DNA of 64,000 nt from Tetradesmus obliquus (Eukaryota; Chlorophyta; Chlorophyceae; Sphaeropleales; Scenedesmaceae). The stretch lies in contig CP126194.1 of assembly GCA_030272155.1 (NCBI GenBank), positions 1,417,501 to 1,481,500 of the forward strand, given 5' to 3'. The notes under the pieces were generated by a model that was given only the letters and a program-made list of their open reading frames with translations, ran no database searches and was not told the DNA's origin. Made by a program: the position numbers and the translations under genes. Below are positions 41,933 to 53,573 of the stretch, piece by piece. Positions within the stretch are counted from its first letter, which is position 1. Every line of letters starts with the position of its first letter.

Positions 41933-43757
41933 AGCAGTGCAGTGAGATCACCCCGGCTGCTTCTTCTGCACTGATAGGCGCGTATGGCGGCGCCGCCCAG
42001 CTGCTGCTCCTTGCAGCAGTTGGCCCCCCAAGCCACATGCGCGTCACACGCAAGCAGCATCATGGCTTGTTTGCTGCGGCGCGGCGCAGATGTGCGGCGC
42101 AGCTAGCACGCCAAGGGCTGGTTTGCGGAAGCTAGCAGCAGCTTGGCACCCAGCCACGTGCGCGCCACGCGCAAGTGATAGCTATGTTGCCTTCATCAGC
42201 GTCGGCAGCGGCGGCTGTGGTGTTTAGTTCTGCATCTGGTCGGAGCAGCTGCGCCGGCCGCGCATGCAGTGCGTGCCACGCCACACTGACTGCCTGGCGG
42301 GTTTTTGCAGGGCTGCTGACAGCGCCCTTGTGGTTTGCTGCCCTGCAAAGCACATCACCATTACCATCATCAATTTCGCAGGGCCTCGCGGCTCTCCTCA
42401 CAGCCTGCTACGGCACAGATCCAAGCATGCGTACACTTTTGTGTGTGAATCCTGATGCAGGCACAGCGTTGTGCTAGTTTGCAGCATGCAGAGCCATCCG
42501 CGTCATACGGTGCATATGCGCGGCAGTCATCGTGATGGCATTGCATGTCATGCGTCATCTGCTTGTCATTGTAGCACTGCCCATCACGGGGAGCAGCTCG
42601 CTTTGCGTGTGTATTGCCCACTGCAACATGGCAGTCAGCAACCCTTGTTTGACCTGTACCCTGTGGCTCGGCAGGTGTCAGGTCCCCATAAGGCGGGCTG
42701 GTGCAGCATAATGCCAGCTATGCACACATGGCCGTGCTTGAAGCTTGACATGGCACTGGCCCCTGCTGTGGTGCCATGCATACATGCCACTGGTGGTGGC
42801 TGATCCGCACAGCAGTGGACTCTGCAGTATCATGATGTTCAGGGGTGTTTACCCTGAGGACGCGTGTGCAGCCGTGTTCAGCCGGTGCATGTGTTTCTTT
42901 GGCTGGGTCGGGCCTGGCATTTGGCTGGGTGTGGTCAGGTGAAGGAACCATGCACATGTGCACAAGATGATGTGCATAGCACTTTGTGAACGCCACTGCA
43001 TCATGCATGCAAACTCTGGACTCCTTGTCCTGGGTGTTGGGCCTGCAAGGCCGTGCCATGGCCAGTCTGTGACAGAACTAATGCAGCGGGCGGCAGCAGT
43101 GGATAACTGTCTGAAGTATCACAGCTTTTTTTGTCAACAGCATCACGTACCTGCAAGTGCCGATCTTTGTCTTTGGACATGGCTGTCTACACAGCATGCT
43201 CATGGTCAGTGCAGGTCACGCATGTGGTGCTTGTCCTCAAAAGGTGCAGCTTTCGTGTCATGCAGGCTTCATAGCAGCGGTTTACATATCGCTATTTCTT
43301 GTGGTGTTTTGCAGCGACGTGGCCTGGAGCAGCAGCAGCAGCAGAACTTGCACTGTTGTCACTGCTGTATCCAAGCTTCTCGCTTGGCAGGGCATAGAAC
43401 GCGCTGTAACCTTTTCTCGACATATGATTAGTTTCCAAGAATGCCCTGATGCATGCGAGGAGTGCATGTAAGGCAGACCGTAGCTGGCGCGTTCGAGACG
43501 GTTCTTGGGTGCGCGGCAGACATGTTACGATCGTGTGTATATGCCACACGCAACTCCATTTGGTGAACACTTTGGCCAATAGTGGATTTCAGCGTTGATC
43601 TGAGCACAAGCCAACGTACACGTTGCCCACGACGCTCACGCACCTGCTGGTGCTTCTGCTTCCAGTGCTGTTCAGCATATTACAGCTCGCAGCGGCAGCC
43701 GAAATACGCAAACTGAAGCTTAACCTTGGTTAAAGCTGGGCGTTGGCCTCTATTACC
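41933..43757. other. intergenic stretch upstream of STI1
   Basis: No supported gene. A plus-strand frame at 43157-43471 has a hydrophobic middle but no family resemblance. The final 150 bases should hold the STI1 promoter; I could not identify a convincing TATA or heat-shock element by eye. Confidence 0.5.
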
Positions 43758-45934
43758 ATGGCGGACGCGTTGAAGGTACTAGATGCAGTGCAGGGCAGCA
43801 GCAGCATTTGTTTTCCAACACACCTGGCTGGACAACACCCCTGACTGATGTTCTTGCGTCTTTCAGGCCAAAGGAAATGCTGCCTTTTCTTCTGGGAACT
43901 ATGAGGAGGCGATCAAGTTCTTCTCAGAGGCAATTGAGCTCGATCCCAGCAACCATGTGCTGTACAGCAACCGCAGCGCAGCTGAGGTAGGAGCACAGAG
44001 CAGCTCAATGATGAATGACGCACTGCTGGTTGTGACAAACGACATTTGACAATGAATGATACACACACGATTCCTGCAAGCTGCAACAGGGAGCGCATGT
44101 GTGCACTCAATGCCCACTGCAGCAGTACACATGAAGCCGCTACCGGCAGCCACTGGCACCAATGGTCATTGCAGTTGTTCTGACAATGTCTGCATGCGCA
44201 GCTTGTTGCTCATTCATGGCATCATGCAAATCGGCTCTTGATGCTGCAGATACTGCTTCGTGTCACTGAGCAGAGCTGCAGGCTGCTGCCTGGGGAGAAT
44301 GAGGCCCTGCTCCCCACCCCTGCAAGCCATACACATGCAAGCCATACACATGCATGTGCATTGCAGCAGCAGCAGCAGCAGCAGCAGCAGCCCAGCAGGC
44401 GAAAGCTTTTGTCAATATGCTGCCTGCTGTTTCCAGTGGAGTATTGACAGTACCCTTTGGCTGCTGCTGCACATCGCAGGCGAGCCTGCAGCAGTATTCC
44501 AAGGCCCTGAAAGATGCTAAGAAGGTGGGCAGGGGGCGGCTGGCTGCTGCTTGGCTTTGCGTGCAGCTGCCGTCACTGCCAGCTGAAACAATAACGCAAA
44601 AACAGCAGTTGCTATGACAGCAAGCAAGCGCATAGAAGTGTGTGATGGCAGAGGGATCTGGGAACCATTAAAAGCCGATCTGCTGGAAGCAGCCGCCAGC
44701 AACAGCTGCAGCAGCGTTCTGCAACCCACCTTCCCTTGCAGCAGCACCATGCACTGCAGTTGTGATGCTGGCAGCCCTCTGTTAACATAGCTTTTAACAT
44801 AGCCATTCACTGCTGCTGCTGCTGCTGCTGCCGCAGTGTGTGGTGCTGAAGCCAGACTGGGCCAAGGGCTACAGCCGGCTGGGCGCAGCCTACTACGGCC
44901 TGCAGGAGTGGGAGGAGGCAGTCAAGGCATACGAGGACGGTGAGCAGCAGCAGCAGCAGCAGGGGACAGGCTTGCATGGCTGCATGCACACTTTGTGCAC
45001 AAACGTGTTATGTGCAGCAGTTGAGGCAGCGTCAGCTGGCGGCAAGTTGAAGGGAAGTGCGCAGTGCACCCTGCAGCGCGGCAGGCATCGTCAGGGTCCG
45101 CAGCGTTTTAGGTGGCAGTAATCAGGGCAGGCGGATGTTGTTGACTGCTGCCTGCGAAACATCATTGTGTGCCCAATATGACACTTGGGCTGAAGTCCCC
45201 GCATGTCTGCTGCACCTTTTTTGTCTGCTGCGCCTGCTGCAGGCCTGCACATCGACCCCAACAACCAGCAGATGCAGTCAGCGCTGAACGATGCCATGTC
45301 AGCAAAGAACAGGCCGCCAGCAGGTGAGGCGACTGGCAGCAGCAGCAGCAGGTGGCAGCAGCAGCAGCAGCACCGGCAGCAGGAGCAGGTGGTAACAGCA
45401 GCAGTTAATGTAGTGTCTGTTGAAGCTGAGATTATCGCAGCCCAAGAGAAGCAGCAATGCAGCTGCAATTCAGGCCGTAGCCGGTTGGAAGCAGCAGCCG
45501 TCTGAGTGACAGCATCTTGCAATGCTGCGGTTCAAACAGCAGCTTCTACAGCAGCAGCAGACGCAGCCGCAGCTACCGTGGCAGAGCAGGCAGCCCAAGC
45601 AGTGGCACAGGCACCAGCAGTACGCAGCACACAGCTGTGTAAGTAGCAGCATCTTGAGAAGCTGCGGTTCAAGCAACAGCTTCTGCACCAGCAGCAGCAG
45701 CAGCAGTTGCCGCAGCCGCCACTTTCGCCGTGGCAGCGGCCGTGGCAGCGGAGGCAGCCCAAGCAGCAGTGCAGGCACCAGCAGCACGCAGCATACGCGT
45801 CCACAGCTAGACTCCAGCCCTCTGCATCCAGGCCCTGGACGTTCCCTTCCCTGCCTTGTTCAAAACACCGCTCTTCTGGGTGACCAACTTTTGACATCAT
45901 GTCACAACATGCAAATGTAGTCACTATGTCAACA

Positions 45935-45971
<37 letters not shown>

Positions 45972-48900
45972 AGGCGGCGGCCTGTTTGGCCCTGACGCGC
46001 TGATGCGCCTGGCCATGGACAGCCGCACGCGCCACCTCATGGACGACAGGGAGTTCCAGGGCATGCTGCAGGGGCTGATGGCTAATCCAAGCATGATTGG
46101 CGCACACCTGAACGACCCACGCATGCAGCTGGTGGGTGTGGGGTGTATGGGTACAGGGTGATTAATATGGTTGAATAGGTGCAGCGGTTGGGCAGGTTGG
46201 TGTTATCTTGCTGCTTTTGTGAGTGTTCAGAGGGCGTTTGCTGTGGTGATGGTGTGGTGGTATGTGGGTGGCGCCACCTCATGCATGACAAGGAGTTCCA
46301 GGGCATGCTGCAGGGGCTGATGGCCAACCCCAGCAAGATCGGAGCACACCTCAACGACCCGCGCATGCAGCTGGTGGGTTGATGCATTTTTTTCCGGAAG
46401 GTTTTGGTGTTTGTGGGGCAGGGGTGCTGCAGCAGGGTGCGGCAGACATGTGTGTTATTGATCGGTCTGCTGGTCCCGGAATGTGTTTGGTGTGTGGGTG
46501 GCACCTCATGCATGACAAGGAGTTCCAGGGCATGCTGCAGGGGCTGATGGCCAACCCCAGCATGATCGGAGCACACGTCAACGACCCGCGCATGCAGCTG
46601 GTGGGTTGATGCATTTTTTCCCGGAAGGTTTTGGTGTTTGTGGGGCAGGGGTGCTGCAGCAGGGTGCGGCAGACATGTGTGTTGTTGATCGGTCTGCTGG
46701 TCCCGGAATGTGTTTGGTGTGTGGGTGGCACCTCATGGAGGACAGGGAGTTCCAGGGCATGCTGCAGGGGCTGATGGCCAACCCCAGCATGATCGGAGCA
46801 CACCTGAATGACCCACGCATGCAGCTGGTGGGTTTTTTTATTTGTCGTCTACTGGTTTCAGAAGGTTTTGGTGTGGTTGGGCCAGGGGTGCTGCAGCAGG
46901 GTGCGACCGATGTGAGTGCTGTGGTTGGCCTGTTGGTGTCGGAGTTTGTGTGGTGTGTGGGTGGCACCACCTCATGGACGACAGGGATTTCCAGGGCATG
47001 CTGCAGGGGCTCATGGCTAATCCAAGCATGATCGGGGCACACCTCAACGACCCACGCATGCAGCTGGTGGGTGTGGGGTGTGTGTGATTGGTTGGTGTGG
47101 TTGAGTAGACGTGTGCAGAGGGTAGGCAGGTTGGTGTTATGCTCTTGCTGTTCTGGTGAGTGTCCAGATGGTGTTTTGTGTCTGGTGTGTGGGTGGCGCC
47201 ACCTCATGGACGACAGAATTTCAGGGCATGCTGCAGGGGCTTATGGCCAACCCCAGCATGACCGGAGCACACCTCAACGACCCACGCATGCAGCTGATGG
47301 GTTGATCTGATTCAATCTGGAAGGTTTTGGTGTGGGTGAGGCAGGGGTGCCGCAGCGGCTGGTGGGTTTGGTGCAGTGTTGTAGAGGGTAACAGAGTAGG
47401 AGGGCGTGAAGAAGGCCATGATGGCAGAGGTGCGACAGGTCTCTGCCCCACTGTTTCAGCAAGTCGCAGTCAGCCGGCATAACATACTGACATCTTGGGT
47501 GTGCTTCTGCCCTGCTGCCGTACCGCCGTTGCTGCTGCTGCTGCTGCTGCCAGGCCCTGGAGGTGATGCTAGGGCTCAAAGTGGCAGGCAACAAGGGAGA
47601 CGTGTTTGACGGAGCAGCAGATGCAGCAGCAGCAGCAGCAGAGGAAGGCGAGGCGCAGTCGCGACCACAGCAGCCAGCAGCAGCAGCAGCAGCCAGCAAA
47701 GCAGCAGAGCCGCAGCAAGGCGGCAGCAGCAGCAGCAAGGTGAGCTGGTATGAAGGCATCAGGCTCGTTGTTGGGCCTGCTGCACTGCAGTGCACAGTCT
47801 GCATGTATTGCGACGCATTGCTATGTTGCATGCTGCCTGCTGTTGCTGCCTGCTGTGGCTGCCGGCAGAAGGTGTTTGTGTGTGCAGTTTGCAGCTGCTG
47901 CAGCACTGATTGATGATCCGGTGCTTGTCGTGCATCACCCACTAACACTGTGTTACTGTGGTGTGTTACTCGCTAACACTGTGTTATCCACTAACCCTGT
48001 GTTACTGTGCTGTGGCTGCAGGCGGCGGAGCAGCAGCCAGCGCAGCCGGGACCTGAGGTGGAGATGTCAGAGGAGGACGAAGCAGCAGCAGCAAACAAGA
48101 AAGAGGTGCGCACACAGGCAGCAGCGCCAGCAGCAGCAGAGCCGGCGGCACGAAATGGTTTGCGGGGCAGTCACGAAGGCCTTGCTGGCAGTCCACACTG
48201 TGTGCTATCTTGTGGCTTGCCTTCAGATCGTTTCATCACCGCGCAGAGAGAACATTTTTTGTTCTTGAGTCTGTTCTGGGTGTTTCGGCAATCATTTCAT
48301 TTCTGTTCTCAACTGCACAACATTAAAACATGTGTGTATGTGCCTGCAGGCGCTGGCGCTGAAGGCGCAGGGCAACGAGCTGTACAAGGCGCGCAAGTTT
48401 GATGAGGCCATCGAGGCCTACAACAAGGCGCTAGAGCTGTACGATGGCGACGTGTCATTCCTCACCAACAGGTGCGGTTGGTTTTGACAGCCTATGTTAT
48501 TTATTGGAGCTTTGCAGATTTGAGGGGGCGATTGAGGCCTACAACAAAGCATTGGATCTGTACGATGGCGACGTGTCCTTCCTCACCAACAGGTGCGTGT
48601 TTTGTGCGGTGTTTCGCCACCCTTTTTTTATTTGGGCAGGATTTGAGCACATGGATTGTTGGACGCCATAGATGAGTGGCTTTGGCGAACCCGCAAGGGC
48701 ATCCACCAGCTGCATTGATTGCTGCGAGACCAGCAATTGCTGCGAGTCAACCAGTCAAGGGGTTGGTGCTGGCTGTGCAGCAGCAGACCGAATGCATGTG
48801 CTGGGATTGTTGGAGCTGTGCTGTAATCAGCCATTCAATATATGCAGCAGGGTGCTACTTGTACACTACTAATACCTCTGCACACAGGCCGTGCTGCGCC

Positions 48901-51738
48901 TTCCTGTGCTTGAGCATACGGTGCACAGCGGCCTGGCGTGCCAATCTTCTATGTGCACGGTGCACAGTGCACTTGCTTTTTGCACTGGCAGCCGTGCTGC
49001 AGTGACTGCCAGTGTGGAACGCAGTGCGAGAGCAACGTCTCTCGGCCTTTGGGGGCACATATAACCGCCACCAGCGTCACTCTGGTGCTTGGTCGTCCCG
49101 CTCCCCACATTCTGCTGCTACGCTCGCTGCGTCTGCTGCACCGCAGACATGTGCTTGTCTTCTTACTGCACCCCACGCTTATTACCCTTGAAGCCAGATT
49201 GCTTGATCTCAGGCTGCGCCAACTCTTATCAAGAACTCAAACTTGAACTTGTTATCCTGCATTGTGCCGCGCCAGGGCTGCCGTGCATTTTGAAAAGGGC
49301 GACTATGAAGCAGCAATCAAGGACTGCGACACAGCAGTCGACAAGGGGCGCACCAGGCAAGGGCCCCAGGCTGTGTGCTGACCATGTTTCCTTTCTCACC
49401 CTGCCTTGCCGCTGCAGGGCTGCGGTGCATTTTGAGAAGGGCAACTACGAAGCAGCAATCAAGGACTGCGACACCGCAGTGGAGAAGGGCCGCGAGCTGC
49501 GTGCTGACTATGCGCTGATCGCGCGCGCTCTGGCTCGCAAGGGCACTGCGCTGGTCAAGCTGGGGAGGCTGGAGGAGGCTGTGGGTGTGTTCAATAAGAG
49601 CCTGACGGAGCACCGCACCGCTGACACACTCAAGAAGCTCAACGAGGCAGAGAAGACGCTGAAGGTGGGGTTCATAGTTTGGGTCGTGACAATCGCAGTG
49701 TTGGGACGCAGCGGCGTTTGTCCAGCAGCTGCTGGCTTTCACTGCTTGTTCTCTTTCCTCAGCGTTGTTGAGGCTCCCAGCAATATGTAGCTCTTGCTTT
49801 TGCAACCTCAGAGCATGCTGTTGCACTCCATGTGTAGCTTGGGGGTACAGAGGCTTTACACTGAAGTTGCACTCGCTTGGACACCTCATTTCAACCCTGC
49901 AGGAGCAAAAGGAGGCCGCGTATGTGGACATGGAGGCCAGCACGAAGGAGAAGGACCTGGGCAACGCCGCTTTCAAGGAGGCACGCTACCCTGAGGCGGT
50001 GGCACACTACAACGAGGCACTCAAGCGCGGCCCGCCCAAGGTGAGATGAATTTTTGAGTGAAGCTTGCACGGCTGCATGGCATGTCATGCTTTCTTCATC
50101 GTGCCTTTTGAGGGTGGTTGTTCCTGATTGTCAGCTGTCGCTGTGCCAAGTTCTCTGCAGTGATCCAGGATTCTGAGCCTCTGCTGCAATGTGTTTGCCC
50201 ATACGGCTGTCCCTACCTGGCTAACACCTGTCTTCTTCTCACTCAGGTGAACCCTGAGGCGCACAAGCTGTACAGCAACCTGGCAGCCTGCTACACCAAG
50301 CTTGGGGCATACCCAGAGGGGCTCAAGGCGGCTGACAGGTGAGTGTGCTTTTCTTTTGTGATGAGTGTTGAAGAAAGGAGTATGATGCTTGCATGTGTGG
50401 CAGCAGGCAGGCGTTTGGTGTTGCTGGGACGCAGCAGGAACAGCGTTCTCTGCGTGTGCCGTGTGGAAGCGGGTTATCTTTGGATCTGGGCGCTTGCATT
50501 GCATAGTATCAGAGCTGCATCATACCTGTGGCTGGATTGCAACAGGTGCGTCCGTGCAGCGGCATATGTACTGCGGCTGCTGCGCTGCACTCTCCTGGCT
50601 GCTGCACAGCTCAATCAGCATATGCGGCAGCATATGCCGCAGCTTGGTGAACCTCAACAAGGCACAATGCACCCTCTTGCTGCAGGTGTGTTGAGCTGGC
50701 ACCGAACTTATTCAAGTGCTACAGCCGCAAGCCAGCGTTGTGTATTTGGCTTCCTTCTCTGCCGAGTCAGATATTGCTACATCACTCAACATGTTTTCAC
50801 CACCCCAACCTTGCCTGCAGGTGTGTGGAGCTGGCGCCCGTCTTTGTCAAGGGCTACAGCTGCAAGCCAGTGTTGTTTTTTTGCATTCCTTCTTGCCAGT
50901 CAGATATTGCTACATCACTCAGCATGGTCGTGTCAATCCAACCTTGCCTGCAGGTGTGTGGAGCTGGCGCCGGACTTTGTCAAGGGCTACAGCCGCAAGG
51001 GCGCACAGTCCAACAAACACGCTTCAAACATGTGGCATGTCTTGACTCACTGCCTGCAGGTGTGTGGAGCTGGCGCCGGACTTTGTCAAGGGCTACAGCC
51101 GGAAGCCAGTATGCTGTGTCTGACCTCCTCCCCGCCTGGCCAAACATGGCCGTATCACCCCACCCATGGTGTTGTCACCGCACTATCTGCTGCAGGTGTG
51201 TGGAGCTGGCGCCGGACTTTGTCAAGGGCTACAGCCGCAAGGGCGCGCTGCAGTTCTTCATGAAGGAGTATGAGAAGGCCATGGCCACGTACGAGGCGGG
51301 CCTGCTGCACGAGCCGGACAACGCGGAGCTGAAGGAGGGCATCATGCGCTGCCTGCAGGCCATCGACCGCATCGCTCACGGTGAGCATATGCCCGGTGTA
51401 AAACGTGTTGCAGCGCTGCATGCAGCTGCAGGCCATGGAAGTTCAGCAGCGCGCACAATGAGCACTTAGATGTATGATGCATGCGGATGAGTTTCAGCTT
51501 GTGGGCAGTGCAGGCCATCAACCGCATCGCGCACGGTGAGGCGTGAGGCATGCTTGGGAGCTGCTTCAGATGTTTGTACAGCGTAGCACGTGCTCAGCGC
51601 TCGTGCCGTCCTGCTGCTGCTGCTGCTGCTGCCACAGGCGATGCCAGCGAGGAAGAAATCAAAGATCGCCAGGCGCGCGCCATGGCAGACCCCGATGTTC
51701 AGAACATCCTCATGGACCCCATCATGCAACATCCTGGC

Positions 51739-51791
<53 letters not shown>

Positions 51792-52257
51792 AGGTGACGC
51801 CTCCGAAGAAGAAATCAAGGACCGCCAGGCGCGCGCCATGGCAGACCCCGATGTTCAGAACATCCTCATGGACCCCATCATGCAACGTTCTGACTTTGCT
51901 GCTGCTGCTGCCGCCGCAGGCGACGCCAGCGAGGAAGAAAACAAAGACCGCCAGGCGCGTGCTATGGCAGATCCCGATGTCCAGAACATCCTCATGGACC
52001 CCATCATGCAACGTTCTAACTTTGCTGCTGCTGCTGCTGCCGCCACAGGTGACGCCAGCGAAGAAGAAATCAAAGACCGTCAGGCTCGTGCAATGGCCGA
52101 TCCCGATGTCCAGAACATCCTCATGGACCCCATCATGCGCCAGGTGCTGGATGACTTCCAGACTGACCCCCGTGCAGCACGCCACCACCTGCAGAACCCG
52201 GAGATCCACCGCAAGATCAGCAAGCTGGTGTCAGCAGGCATCATCCAGCTGCGGTAG
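43758..52257 (+). CDS. STI1: STI1/HOP Hsp70-Hsp90 organizing co-chaperone
   Basis: Fourteen exons join in phase: 43758-43775, 43867-43986, 44480-44524, 44837-44939, 45243-45323, 45974-46131, 47554-47739, 48022-48105, 48350-48471, 49418-49664, 49903-50040, 50247-50338, 51196-51380, 52049-52257. The minimal product is about 595 residues. TPR1 (residues 1-115) has the carboxylate-clamp pattern ([18 protein letters not shown]). DP1 follows ([20 protein letters not shown]), then an acidic Ala/Gln linker, TPR2A ([20 protein letters not shown]), TPR2B ([20 protein letters not shown]) and DP2 ([19 protein letters not shown], ending AGIIQLR). HOP bridges the C-terminal EEVD tails of cytosolic Hsp70 and Hsp90 for client transfer. 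Exons 6, 9, 10, 13 and 14 have tandem copies. If the last exon starts at 51638 rather than 52049 the protein gains 137 residues in frame. Confidence 0.96.
46030..47296 (+). repeat. six tandem copies of the DP1-encoding STI1 exon 6 end plus intron
   Basis: The exon 6 segment from CACCTCATGGACGAC to the CTG/GTGGGT donor ends at 46131. Copies end at 46373, 46600, 46827, 47066 and 47296 (spacing 242, 227, 227, 239, 230). Copies 2-5 retain an intact frame encoding HLMxD(K/R)(E/D)FQGMLQG and a GTGGG donor. Copy 6 has a deletion in its frame and its donor changed from GT to AT. The intron between copies 2, 3 and 4 is nearly identical. Confidence 0.97.
48518..48592 (+). repeat. in-frame copy of STI1 exon 9 3' half (possible cassette exon)
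   Basis: Seventy-five bases bounded by a TTTGCAG acceptor and a GTGCGT donor resemble the end of exon 9 (to 48471). They encode [20 protein letters not shown] where exon 9 has [20 protein letters not shown]. Length and phase (2 to 2) allow inclusion between exons 9 and 10 without a frameshift. Confidence 0.9.
49276..49350 (+). repeat. partial copy of STI1 exon 10 start
   Basis: After a GCGCCAG acceptor, this repeats the exon 10 start ([20 protein letters not shown] versus [20 protein letters not shown]). It lacks a donor, runs into a stop and is out of phase with the real exon at 49418. Confidence 0.9.
50686..51245 (+). repeat. five tandem copies of STI1 exon 13 start with acceptors
   Basis: CAG acceptors followed by a GTGTGTGGAGCTGGCGCC-type exon start occur before 50686 (most diverged), 50821, 50954, 51060 and 51196. 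All encode versions of [15 protein letters not shown]. Only the last continues into [18 protein letters not shown]. Confidence 0.95.
51638..52140 (+). repeat. four in-frame copies of the STI1 DP2 exon start separated by polyAla codons
   Basis: Acceptor-preceded copies of a ~92-base unit start at 51638, 51794, 51920 and 52049. Each encodes GDASEEE(I/N)[10 protein letters not shown] and [12 protein letters not shown]. The spacers are GCT/CTG repeats. The frame from 51638 to the stop at 52257 is open throughout. The first three copies end without a GT donor, so they can act only as alternative starts of the last exon or as part of one longer exon. Confidence 0.97.
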
Positions 52258-52428
52258 AGCGCTGCAGTGCAGTGCTGTGCAGTGCTGTTCAGTGCGGTGG
52301 ACTGCAGGGAGACAGAACAGTCCCAGCATTGTTGCTGGGTGATGAGCTGATGCGATGGTTTTGGTTCGGCAGCTGTGTTTGGCGAGGTGTTGGGCTTGGA
52401 GTGTGCGCAGCCAGCCTGCACTGCATGC

Positions 52429-52612
52429 GCCACCACCTGCAGAACCCTGAGATCCACCGCAAGATCAGCAAGCTGGTCTCAGCAGGCATCATCCAGCTGC
52501 TATGAGCTGTGTGGTTGTTAGGCTGCAGTGCAGAGCAGTGCGGTGTGGTGCAGAGTGGTTGTGTGGTGCACCGCAGCACAAGATCAGCAAGCATTATCCA
52601 GCTGCGACGAGC
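52429..52612 (+). repeat. copies of the STI1 3' terminal coding end
   Basis: About 77 bases at 52429-52505 repeat the last coding segment ([20 protein letters not shown]) and end in TGA instead of TAG. A shorter, decayed copy (AAGATCAGCAAGC then ATCCAGCTGCGACGAGCTG) lies at about 52567-52612. Confidence 0.93.
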
Positions 52613-53424
52613 TGTGGCAGCATGCTGCAGCACAGATCAGTGCAGTGGAGTGCAGTACAGCGCAGTGCGACAGAACGCTTGCAAGTTGCTCCTGTGTGCG
52701 GATGCGGTTGGTTTTTTATCTGATTGTTTTCAGCGGGTTGTCAGGCGGCGATCGTGTCGATGAAGGGTGTGCCTTGGATGGTTGGTTGTGGTATCGAAGG
52801 TGGCTGCTGGCAGGACAGTCGGGTGGTGCCGTCACTGGGCAGTCTGTGCTGCAGTGGCAGTCGTAATGTCAGAGCGCTGCTGTGTCACCTGGTCTGTGCG
52901 GTGGGCATGTTGTACTTTGCCTTGTGTACGCTGCAAAAAGTGTTTGAAACGTGTGGTGTGTGCACACCCGTGGTATATATGCGTGCCATATTTGTGTTGT
53001 GTGGTTTGATGTTTGGCCTGGCTGGCCCTTGCTGGCCTGGGCTGCCTCTCCCAGGCGATTCTGCTAGGCTGCCAGTCAGTTGGTTTGGCCTGGCGGTGAG
53101 CATTGGCTGTCGGGTGGCGTGTTTTCCGCTTTTCATTGTGGTAAATTCGGATCTCCGGCACGCCTCTTGGAAGCCCCTGTGCGATGTGCGGTGTGAGAAC
53201 AGCAGCAGTGCCTCCTGCTGTCACTGATTATCTACCAACAGGGCTGCTGATGCGCAGGATGCTACGGCTAAGATAGCGCCACGTTGGTGCGTCACGCGGT
53301 TTGTTGAGCTTTTTCCTTTTCAGGCGCACGTGCTCCTACACGGCCGTAGACGTGCCAGGTCAACACTGCCAACTATTGTGCGGCACCAGCAGGGCACAGC
53401 TACTGCCACCTCCTCTGAAACTAA
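52613..53424. other. intergenic region between STI1 and the cyclophilin-like gene
   Basis: No gene is supported. It should include the STI1 3' untranslated region and the upstream part of the cyclophilin-like promoter. Confidence 0.55.
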
Positions 53425-53433
53425 TATATAAAA
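53425..53433 (+). promoter_or_regulatory. TATA box of the cyclophilin-like gene
   Basis: TATATAAAA lies about 140 bases upstream of the proposed ATG at 53574, in otherwise GC-rich DNA. Confidence 0.6.
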
Positions 53434-53573
53434 GGGCTGGGTTTCAGCTCGGGAGTCCAGTTGCTGCCACGAAACAGATCACCGAGGGCAATCTCCGAAA
53501 GTTTTTGACACTCCAGCCGTTGCAGCACTCTTCACGAGCATCCAAACAATTCAAACCCTGTACATCTCCAGGC

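What the first reader, a model, noticed from the sequence alone, without database searches (positions are those of the whole stretch)
51638..52257. STI1 last exon has four acceptors spaced by multiples of three, allowing 1-4 DP2 helix units
Copies start at 51638, 51794, 51920 and 52049 (spacing 156, 126, 129). The frame is open from the first acceptor through GCT-coded polyAla spacers to the stop. Against the last copy I count about 11 synonymous and 1 non-synonymous codon differences for copy 1, 9 and 1 for copy 2, and 6 and about 2 for copy 3. That is the pattern of translated sequence, not intron. HOP isoforms with a variable number of DP2 N-terminal helices on alanine linkers would be new to me.
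Basis: partly seen in the sequence, partly recalled or inferred. Interest (0 to 1): 0.85.

Follow-up and report, generated by a model that had tools for sequence, protein, structure and literature searches.

The report
Tandem splice-edge copies in algal HOP
In a green-alga co-chaperone gene (HOP/STI1) the start of the last exon, with its splice site, is repeated four times in frame, so cells could make the protein with one to four copies of a small helical unit; similar copies of exon edges occur in several other genes of this genome, and whether the extra units are really made remains open.

Summary
Four copies of the STI1 last-exon start, each behind an AG, begin at 51638, 51794, 51920 and 52049, all in frame; a 14-exon model gives HOP proteins of 732, 680, 638 or 595 aa. 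Over 30 shared codons the copies differ almost only synonymously (11/0, 9/0, 6/1 against the last).

'Therefore translated' is weaker than it looks. STI1 has six other exon-edge arrays, and gamma-COP, chaperonin-family, Snu114-like and other genes have more. Their copies, few of which could be translated in frame, also show excess synonymous change (125:110 pooled; about 1:3 in a neutral simulation). The STI1 array (13:1) is the most extreme (p = 0.0025, uncorrected) but not a class apart. Offsets of local duplicates show no frame preference (36/33/35).

Best reading: one array of a widespread class of short tandem duplications straddling splice junctions; the last acceptor is probably the default, and the upstream ones are optional and tolerated because GCT tracts keep the frame open. 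Selected 1-4-unit HOP isoforms remain possible (about 0.3). Transcript data would decide and were not available.

The parts
43758..52257 (+). STI1/HOP gene, 14 coding exons (43758-43775, 43867-43986, 44480-44524, 44837-44939, 45243-45323, 45974-46131, 47554-47739, 48022-48105, 48350-48471, 49418-49664, 49903-50040, 50247-50338, 51196-51380, last exon to 52257)
   Evidence: Open joined frame, GT-AG introns; DP2 matches human STIP1 7kw7 and yeast Sti1 2llw; Pfam TPR_1 and STI1-HOP_DP on the C-terminal part
51381..51637 (+). Intron before the first of the four acceptors (donor CACG|GTGAGC, phase 1)
51638..51793 (+). Copy 1: acceptor CCACAG|, unit [30 protein letters not shown], then a spacer with 17 Ala codons (mostly GCT); no CTNAY branch-point-like word in the 70 nt upstream
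51794..51919 (+). Copy 2: acceptor GCTGCAG|; the stretch upstream reads CTGGC where copies 3 and 4 have CTGAC/CTAAC
51920..52048 (+). Copy 3: acceptor GCCGCAG| with CTGAC 30 nt upstream; carries the one amino-acid change (Ile to Asn)
52049..52257 (+). Copy 4 = complete last exon (DP2) with CTAAC 33 nt upstream of the acceptor; stop TAG 52255-52257
46033..47302 (+). Control array in the same gene: DP1 exon 3' end + donor, six copies (46033 functional; 46275, 46502, 46729, 46968, 47200 intronic); no AG directly at the left edge of the intronic copies, last copy frameshifted and with ATGGGT in place of the donor
48398..48597 (+). Control array: TPR2A exon 3' end + donor, 2 copies
49265..49493 (+). 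Control array: acceptor + exon 5' end, 2 copies 142 nt apart (out of frame)
50677..51272 (+). Control array: acceptor + exon 5' end, 5 copies (135, 133, 106, 136); the sum, 510 nt, is in frame and open, but copies show 4 S:6 N
51354..51540 (+). Control array: exon 3' end + donor, 2 copies
52180..52500 (+). Control array: last-exon 3' end copied beyond the stop codon

Best explanation
The four copies are a tandem array made by repeated short DNA duplication of a unit that spans the 3' splice site: branch-point-like word/GCT tract/AG plus about 90 nt of exon. This is one case of a process widespread in this genome. Inferred: the complete exon behind the last acceptor (52049) gives the ordinary 595-aa HOP and is the default, as the copy next to the complete exon has to be in the other acceptor-side arrays, where most upstream decoys would break the protein. 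The upstream acceptors are in frame, so they can be used without loss of frame; each use adds 1-3 two-helix units on alanine-rich linkers between TPR2B and DP2. Inferred: the synonymous bias comes partly from exchange of sequence between functional and upstream copies, partly perhaps from translation.
For: Same kind of array at six other places in STI1; at 10 of 14 exon edges in my seven-exon model of gamma-COP in L010; and in a Snu114-like gene, two further genes and 8 of 12 chaperonin-family loci. Local duplicate pairs: 41 in 180 kb sampled by place, 19 in the 64-kb window, 44 in 32.5 kb of 10 chaperonin-family loci, 0 in one shuffle each of the window and L010. In STI1 and gamma-COP 17 of 23 pairs cross an exon edge (16 a splice junction, one the coding end); random placement gives 10.3. 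Of 24 upstream acceptor decoys outside this array 7 lie at a multiple of three and only 4 are also open, so passing over upstream decoys is probably routine. Silent sites conflict within the array: codons 0 and 4 group copies 1+3 against 2+4, codons 13, 17 and 20 group 1+2 against 3+4. The last nine codons are identical in all four copies even at silent sites (P = 0.005, region chosen after the fact). Both fit exchange between copies, or parallel change. Acceptors 3 and 4 keep a CTRAC word about 30 nt upstream; 1 and 2 do not.
Against: The array's 13:1 S:N exceeds every other array measured with at least 8 states (Fisher 0.0025 against 125:110), which exchange alone need not give. A test for the gradient that exchange predicts (amino-acid changes further from the splice edge) was negative over the controls (p = 0.73). 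Six of the 12 acceptors of the upstream STI1 exons also lack a CTNAY word in the 70 nt before them, so branch-point words are a weak guide here. The detailed control genes in L010, L015, L016 and L018 were picked because they showed duplicates; 8 of 18 readable place samples showed none. No transcript was seen.
Confidence: 0.55

Rival explanations
1. One reading: all four acceptors are used, upstream units are translated and kept by selection, giving HOP isoforms with 1-4 DP2 N-terminal helix units on polyalanine linkers.
For: 13 S:1 N unique codon states, the highest synonymous share of 11 arrays/loci with at least 8 states; 0 of 24000 neutral star simulations gave at least 13 S with at most 1 N; all three spacings are in frame and open; four Pfam STI1-HOP_DP stretches in the long form; single-sequence AlphaFold gives each unit a helix pair, confident for unit 1 and DP2, middling for units 2 and 3, with low-confidence linkers.
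Against: Controls not expected to be translated are also synonymous-biased. Frame is inherited once the first duplication is in frame, and remainders of local duplicates are uniform. The yeast Sti1 literature calls TPR2A-TPR2B-DP2 one rigid module with DP2 in fixed contact with TPR2B (PMC4403447, passages seen), so an insertion there may harm function.
Confidence: 0.3
2. Constitutive four-unit HOP: the true exon starts at 51638, and the inner AGs are relics inside coding sequence.
For: Copy 1 can be translated only if acceptor 1 is used, and copy 1 shows no amino-acid change against copy 4 over codons 0-29.
Against: No CTNAY word near acceptor 1, while acceptors 3 and 4 have one. In the other acceptor-side arrays seen, the copy next to the complete exon is by gene structure the functional one.
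Confidence: 0.1
3. Copies carry the synonymous divergence of old functional alleles: duplication by unequal exchange between diverged haplotypes, followed by too little time for decay.
For: Excess synonymous change in arrays not expected to be coding (125:110 overall); the order of the DP1 array, copies 1 and 5 alike and 2, 3, 4, 6 alike, points to exchange of blocks.
Against: Needs very high allelic divergence, which was not measured; copies also differ by indels and lost splice sites.
Confidence: 0.05

Closest known systems
Intron gain by tandem duplication across an intron-exon boundary (potato RdRp, PMC4974935; abstract seen)
   Same: A short tandem duplication crossing a 3' splice site, with branch site, pyrimidine tract and AG carried along in the copy.
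   Different: There a new intron formed between the copies, from a donor within the exonic segment. Here no new intron is evident; there are four copies in one exon, and such arrays occur in several genes examined, 8 of 12 chaperonin-family loci among them.
Tandem exon duplication and alternative 3' splice-site choice (recalled, not from a call)
   Same: Duplicated coding segment with a choice of acceptors giving isoforms that differ in repeat number.
   Different: Only the 5' part of the exon is duplicated; the intron's acceptor tract (GCT)n doubles as a polyalanine linker; use is unproven.
Yeast Sti1 / human HOP DP2 (2llw, 7kw7)
   Same: The last exon encodes a DP2 domain with clear sequence match (E 5.6e-14 and 3.6e-17).
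   Different: Known HOPs, as recalled, have one DP2 with no repeated N-terminal helix pair.

Membership tests
HOP/STI1 co-chaperone | TPR1-DP1-TPR2A-TPR2B-DP2 domain order | tested here: met
   Joined 14-exon frame reads TPR1, DP1, TPR2A, TPR2B and DP2 in order (TPR1, DP1 and TPR2A by reading only); Pfam and PDB matches on the C-terminal part
HOP/STI1 co-chaperone | Binding of Hsp70 and Hsp90 tails | not testable with these tools
   -
Alternative 3' splice-site isoforms | Several AG acceptors with usable context | tested here: met
   four AGs with GCT tracts; branch-point-like word only before acceptors 3 and 4
Alternative 3' splice-site isoforms | Products stay in frame | tested here: met
   595, 638, 680, 732 aa
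Alternative 3' splice-site isoforms | Transcripts using more than one acceptor | not testable with these tools
   no RNA data held
Alternative 3' splice-site isoforms | Purifying selection on the optional segments beyond that of presumed dead copies | tested here: inconclusive
   13:1 against 125:110, p = 0.0025 uncorrected for choosing this array; against STI1's own other arrays p = 0.027
Splice-edge tandem duplication array (class described here) | Tandem copies straddling a splice junction, one copy attached to the complete exon | tested here: met

The most novel reading that the evidence does not exclude
An alga makes HOP with one to four DP2-leading helix pairs by choosing among four duplicated acceptors, the acceptor's own GCT tract serving as polyalanine linker, so that splicing sets how far DP2 stands from TPR2B; and this is the visible, in-frame end of a genome-wide process that keeps adding splice-site-bearing copies to exon edges.
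Probability: 0.28. Interest if true: 0.78.

Novelty: new variant of a known kind. Interest (0 to 1): 0.5.

Why it matters
If the upstream acceptors are used, splicing would set the geometry between the Hsp70-binding TPR2B and DP2, which in yeast Sti1 form a rigid module. If they are not, the case still matters: introns of several conserved genes in this genome carry exon-edge copies, often with the splice site still present, so the spliceosome must pick the right acceptor among near-identical decoys. That makes it a natural test of how 3' splice sites are chosen, a trap for gene annotation, and a possible supply of new exon ends and introns.

Tried and rejected
Relatives: a scan of viral contigs with the DP2 protein gave none, and the tools hold no relatives of this genome, so orthologues could not be compared. 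Other copies of the last exon in the genome: the search (best candidates only) gave this locus, its own post-stop copy, and short matches whose query positions fall on the GCT/CTG stretches. Exchange gradient: negative (p = 0.73). Neutral simulation as sole null: rejected as too generous, because the controls also depart from it; the empirical controls were used instead. Read-through of the 50686 array as coding: open (28 of 2000 shuffles), but its copies are read in different frames and show 4 S:6 N, so rejected. A structural RNA: no Rfam match at gathering score in 43000-53500. Fold search: not done, since the model was built from one sequence and is weak (mean pLDDT 62.8). Donor-side control copies were not each tested for read-through, so 'not expected to be translated' is for them an inference from gene structure. 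Errors of mine: the 49407 copy was scored in the wrong frame (corrected); its start was set at 49272 instead of 49276 (true distance 142); one search used two exon ends one base short (corrected); one search counts the coding end at 52257 as an edge; the count of L029 includes a piece read out of frame. Of the 12 loci of the Cpn60/TCP1 family fetched, 8 gave copies of the matched exon and 4 gave none. Literature: six searches for tandem, partial or exon-edge duplication at splice sites, or for introns and splicing in this algal group (held no paper, 27 and 46 listed only part) showed no listed paper describing these arrays; one search gave the potato case. Only listings were seen, apart from passages of PMC12899622, PMC8226300 and PMC4403447 and the abstract of PMC4974935.

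Full report
WHAT IS THERE. The window lies in a 104.7-Mb, 17-contig genome. By GC content, intron style and size I take it for a green alga near Scenedesmaceae; this is recalled, not tested. The gene is a complete HOP/STI1: 14 exons from 43758 to 52257, GT-AG introns, one open frame. Its DP2 matches human STIP1 and yeast Sti1 DP2. The last-exon start occurs four times, at 51638, 51794, 51920 and 52049, each after an AG. The upstream exon ends in phase 1 (CACG|GTGAGC), and all four acceptors give an open protein: 732, 680, 638 and 595 aa.

ANATOMY OF A UNIT. Each copy is a 3' splice site plus about 90 nt of exon ([30 protein letters not shown]). Before acceptors 3 and 4 the spacer reads CTGAC or CTAAC, then TTT, then GCT repeats, then CGCAG or CACAG: a branch-point-like word (the consensus is recalled), a pyrimidine-bearing tract and AG. 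Read as protein the same letters give QRSDF/QRSNF and an Ala run. At copy 2 the word is CTGGC, and before copy 1 there is none. The polyalanine linker is thus the acceptor tract read through. A (CTG)n tract before an acceptor is ordinary in this gene; the introns ending at 44836, 45973 and 47553 have it too.

SUBSTITUTION PATTERN. Against copy 4, copies 1, 2 and 3 have 11/0, 9/0 and 6/1 synonymous/non-synonymous codons over codons 0-29; among themselves 6/0, 6/1 and 8/1. As unique codon states against the functional exon over 29 codons this is 13:1. Under a neutral star model (one lineage constrained, three free; means about 1 S to 3 N) no run of 24000 (8 settings of 3000) reached at least 13 S with at most 1 N.

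CONTROLS CHANGE THE PICTURE. The same gene holds six other exon-edge arrays: DP1 3' end + donor (5 intronic copies), TPR2A 3' end, 49276 5' end, 50686 5' end (4 copies), 51354 3' end, and a copy of the last-exon end beyond the stop. Their 13 copies give 32 S:19 N. In gamma-COP (L010; name by reading) 10 arrays, 24 copies, give 20:31. Four arrays in a Snu114-like gene, an ABC1/ADCK-like gene and an L018 gene (names by reading), 7 copies, give 5:7. In the Cpn60/TCP1 family, chosen for the family and not for repeats, 8 of 12 loci have copies of the matched exon, 30 copies, 68:53. The sum is 125:110. Few of these could be coding in place: 20 of 24 acceptor-side decoys are not both in frame and open, and donor-side copies lie beyond the exon's donor (not each tested for read-through). 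The in-frame exceptions (50686 array 4:6, Snu114-like 2:2) do not drive the excess. So excess silent change is general in such copies here, and 13:1 is the extreme of a distribution (p = 0.0025 against all, 0.0003 against gamma-COP, 0.027 against the other STI1 arrays; not corrected for having been picked). It ranks first of 11 arrays/loci with at least 8 states; next are 6/8, 23/32, 6/9 and 13/20.

FRAME. Offsets of 104 local duplicates split 36/33/35 by remainder 0/1/2 modulo three, so there is no sign of general selection on frame. Of 24 upstream acceptor decoys outside this array, 7 are at a multiple of three and 4 of these are also open: two in the 50686 array of STI1 and two in the Snu114-like gene, the latter with GCT spacers and S:N 2:2. 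Once the first duplication is in frame, later ones can inherit it, and trinucleotide slippage keeps it. All-in-frame is therefore weak evidence.

A WIDESPREAD CLASS. Local duplicate pairs (at least 40 nt, same thresholds) run at 0.23 per kb in 180 kb sampled by place, 0.30 per kb in the window and 1.35 per kb in 10 Cpn60/TCP1 loci, with none in one shuffle each of the window and L010; the median offset is 139 nt. They are patchy: 10 of 18 readable place samples have any. In STI1 6 of 7 pairs (five a splice junction, one the coding end) and in gamma-COP 11 of 16 cross an exon edge, against 4.1 and 6.2 by random placement. A duplication across a junction is tolerated because one copy stays attached to the whole exon; those inside exons are lost. 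That, and slower decay of exon-derived pairs, may explain the enrichment without any special machinery (inference).

HOW IT MOST LIKELY WORKS. Shown: duplication units carry AG acceptors, two of them with a branch-point-like word, and the frame is open. Suggested: sequence has been exchanged between copies. Codons 0 and 4 group copies 1+3 against 2+4 while codons 13, 17 and 20 group 1+2 against 3+4, and the last nine codons are identical in all four even at silent sites (P = 0.005, region chosen after the fact); parallel change is not excluded, and the gradient test over controls was negative. Inferred: in the other acceptor-side arrays the complete exon, last in order, is the functional one, so 52049 is the likely default. 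Upstream acceptors may be used at some level because the frame does not punish it. If used, they put helix-pair units between TPR2B and DP2. Single-sequence AlphaFold gives a helix pair per unit, with 10-residue blocks at pLDDT 82-87 for the body of DP2, 84-87 for the start of unit 1, about 48-68 for units 2 and 3, and linkers mostly below 50. In yeast TPR2B and DP2 are in fixed contact (PMC4403447, passages), so such isoforms would loosen the module.

KNOWN OR NEW. The nearest published case found is intron gain in a potato gene by a tandem duplication across an intron-exon boundary (PMC4974935, abstract). The searches listed under Tried and rejected showed no listed paper on arrays of this kind in green algae. 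Alternative splicing by intron retention and exon skipping is reported for Scenedesmus acutus phytochelatin synthase (PMC12899622, passages), without mention of duplicated acceptors in the passages seen.

VERDICT. Observation confirmed; interpretation partly supported. The in-frame array is real and the most synonymous-biased of its kind seen here. The claim of translation needs transcripts. The wider pattern of splice-edge duplication is the more surprising result.

Noticed in passing
L010:3281-9060 (gamma-COP by reading): 10 of 14 exon edges in a seven-exon model are copied into the adjacent intron, with up to six intronic copies, donors and acceptors included.
   Followed up: yes
L016:3676-3884, minus strand (Snu114-like by reading): Three P-loop exon starts, each behind an acceptor, in frame and open with GCT spacers; a second candidate of the same form, without synonymous bias (2:2).
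   Followed up: partly
46033-47302: DP1 donor-side array of six copies in order A B B B A B. From codon 10 of each copy a CAG|GGC acceptor and the GTGGGT donor (lost in the last copy) would make a phase-0 cassette of about 24 codons; 4 of 7 amino-acid-changing states and the one frameshift fall in the 9 codons before it.
   Followed up: partly
50686-51195: Five-copy acceptor array whose whole 510-nt read-through is open and in frame although single steps are mostly not multiples of three.
   Followed up: partly
controls: Intronic exon-edge copies not expected to be translated still show excess synonymous change (125:110 pooled); not explained.
   Followed up: partly
L019, L020: Two of 20 sampled 10-kb stretches read entirely N.
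   Followed up: no
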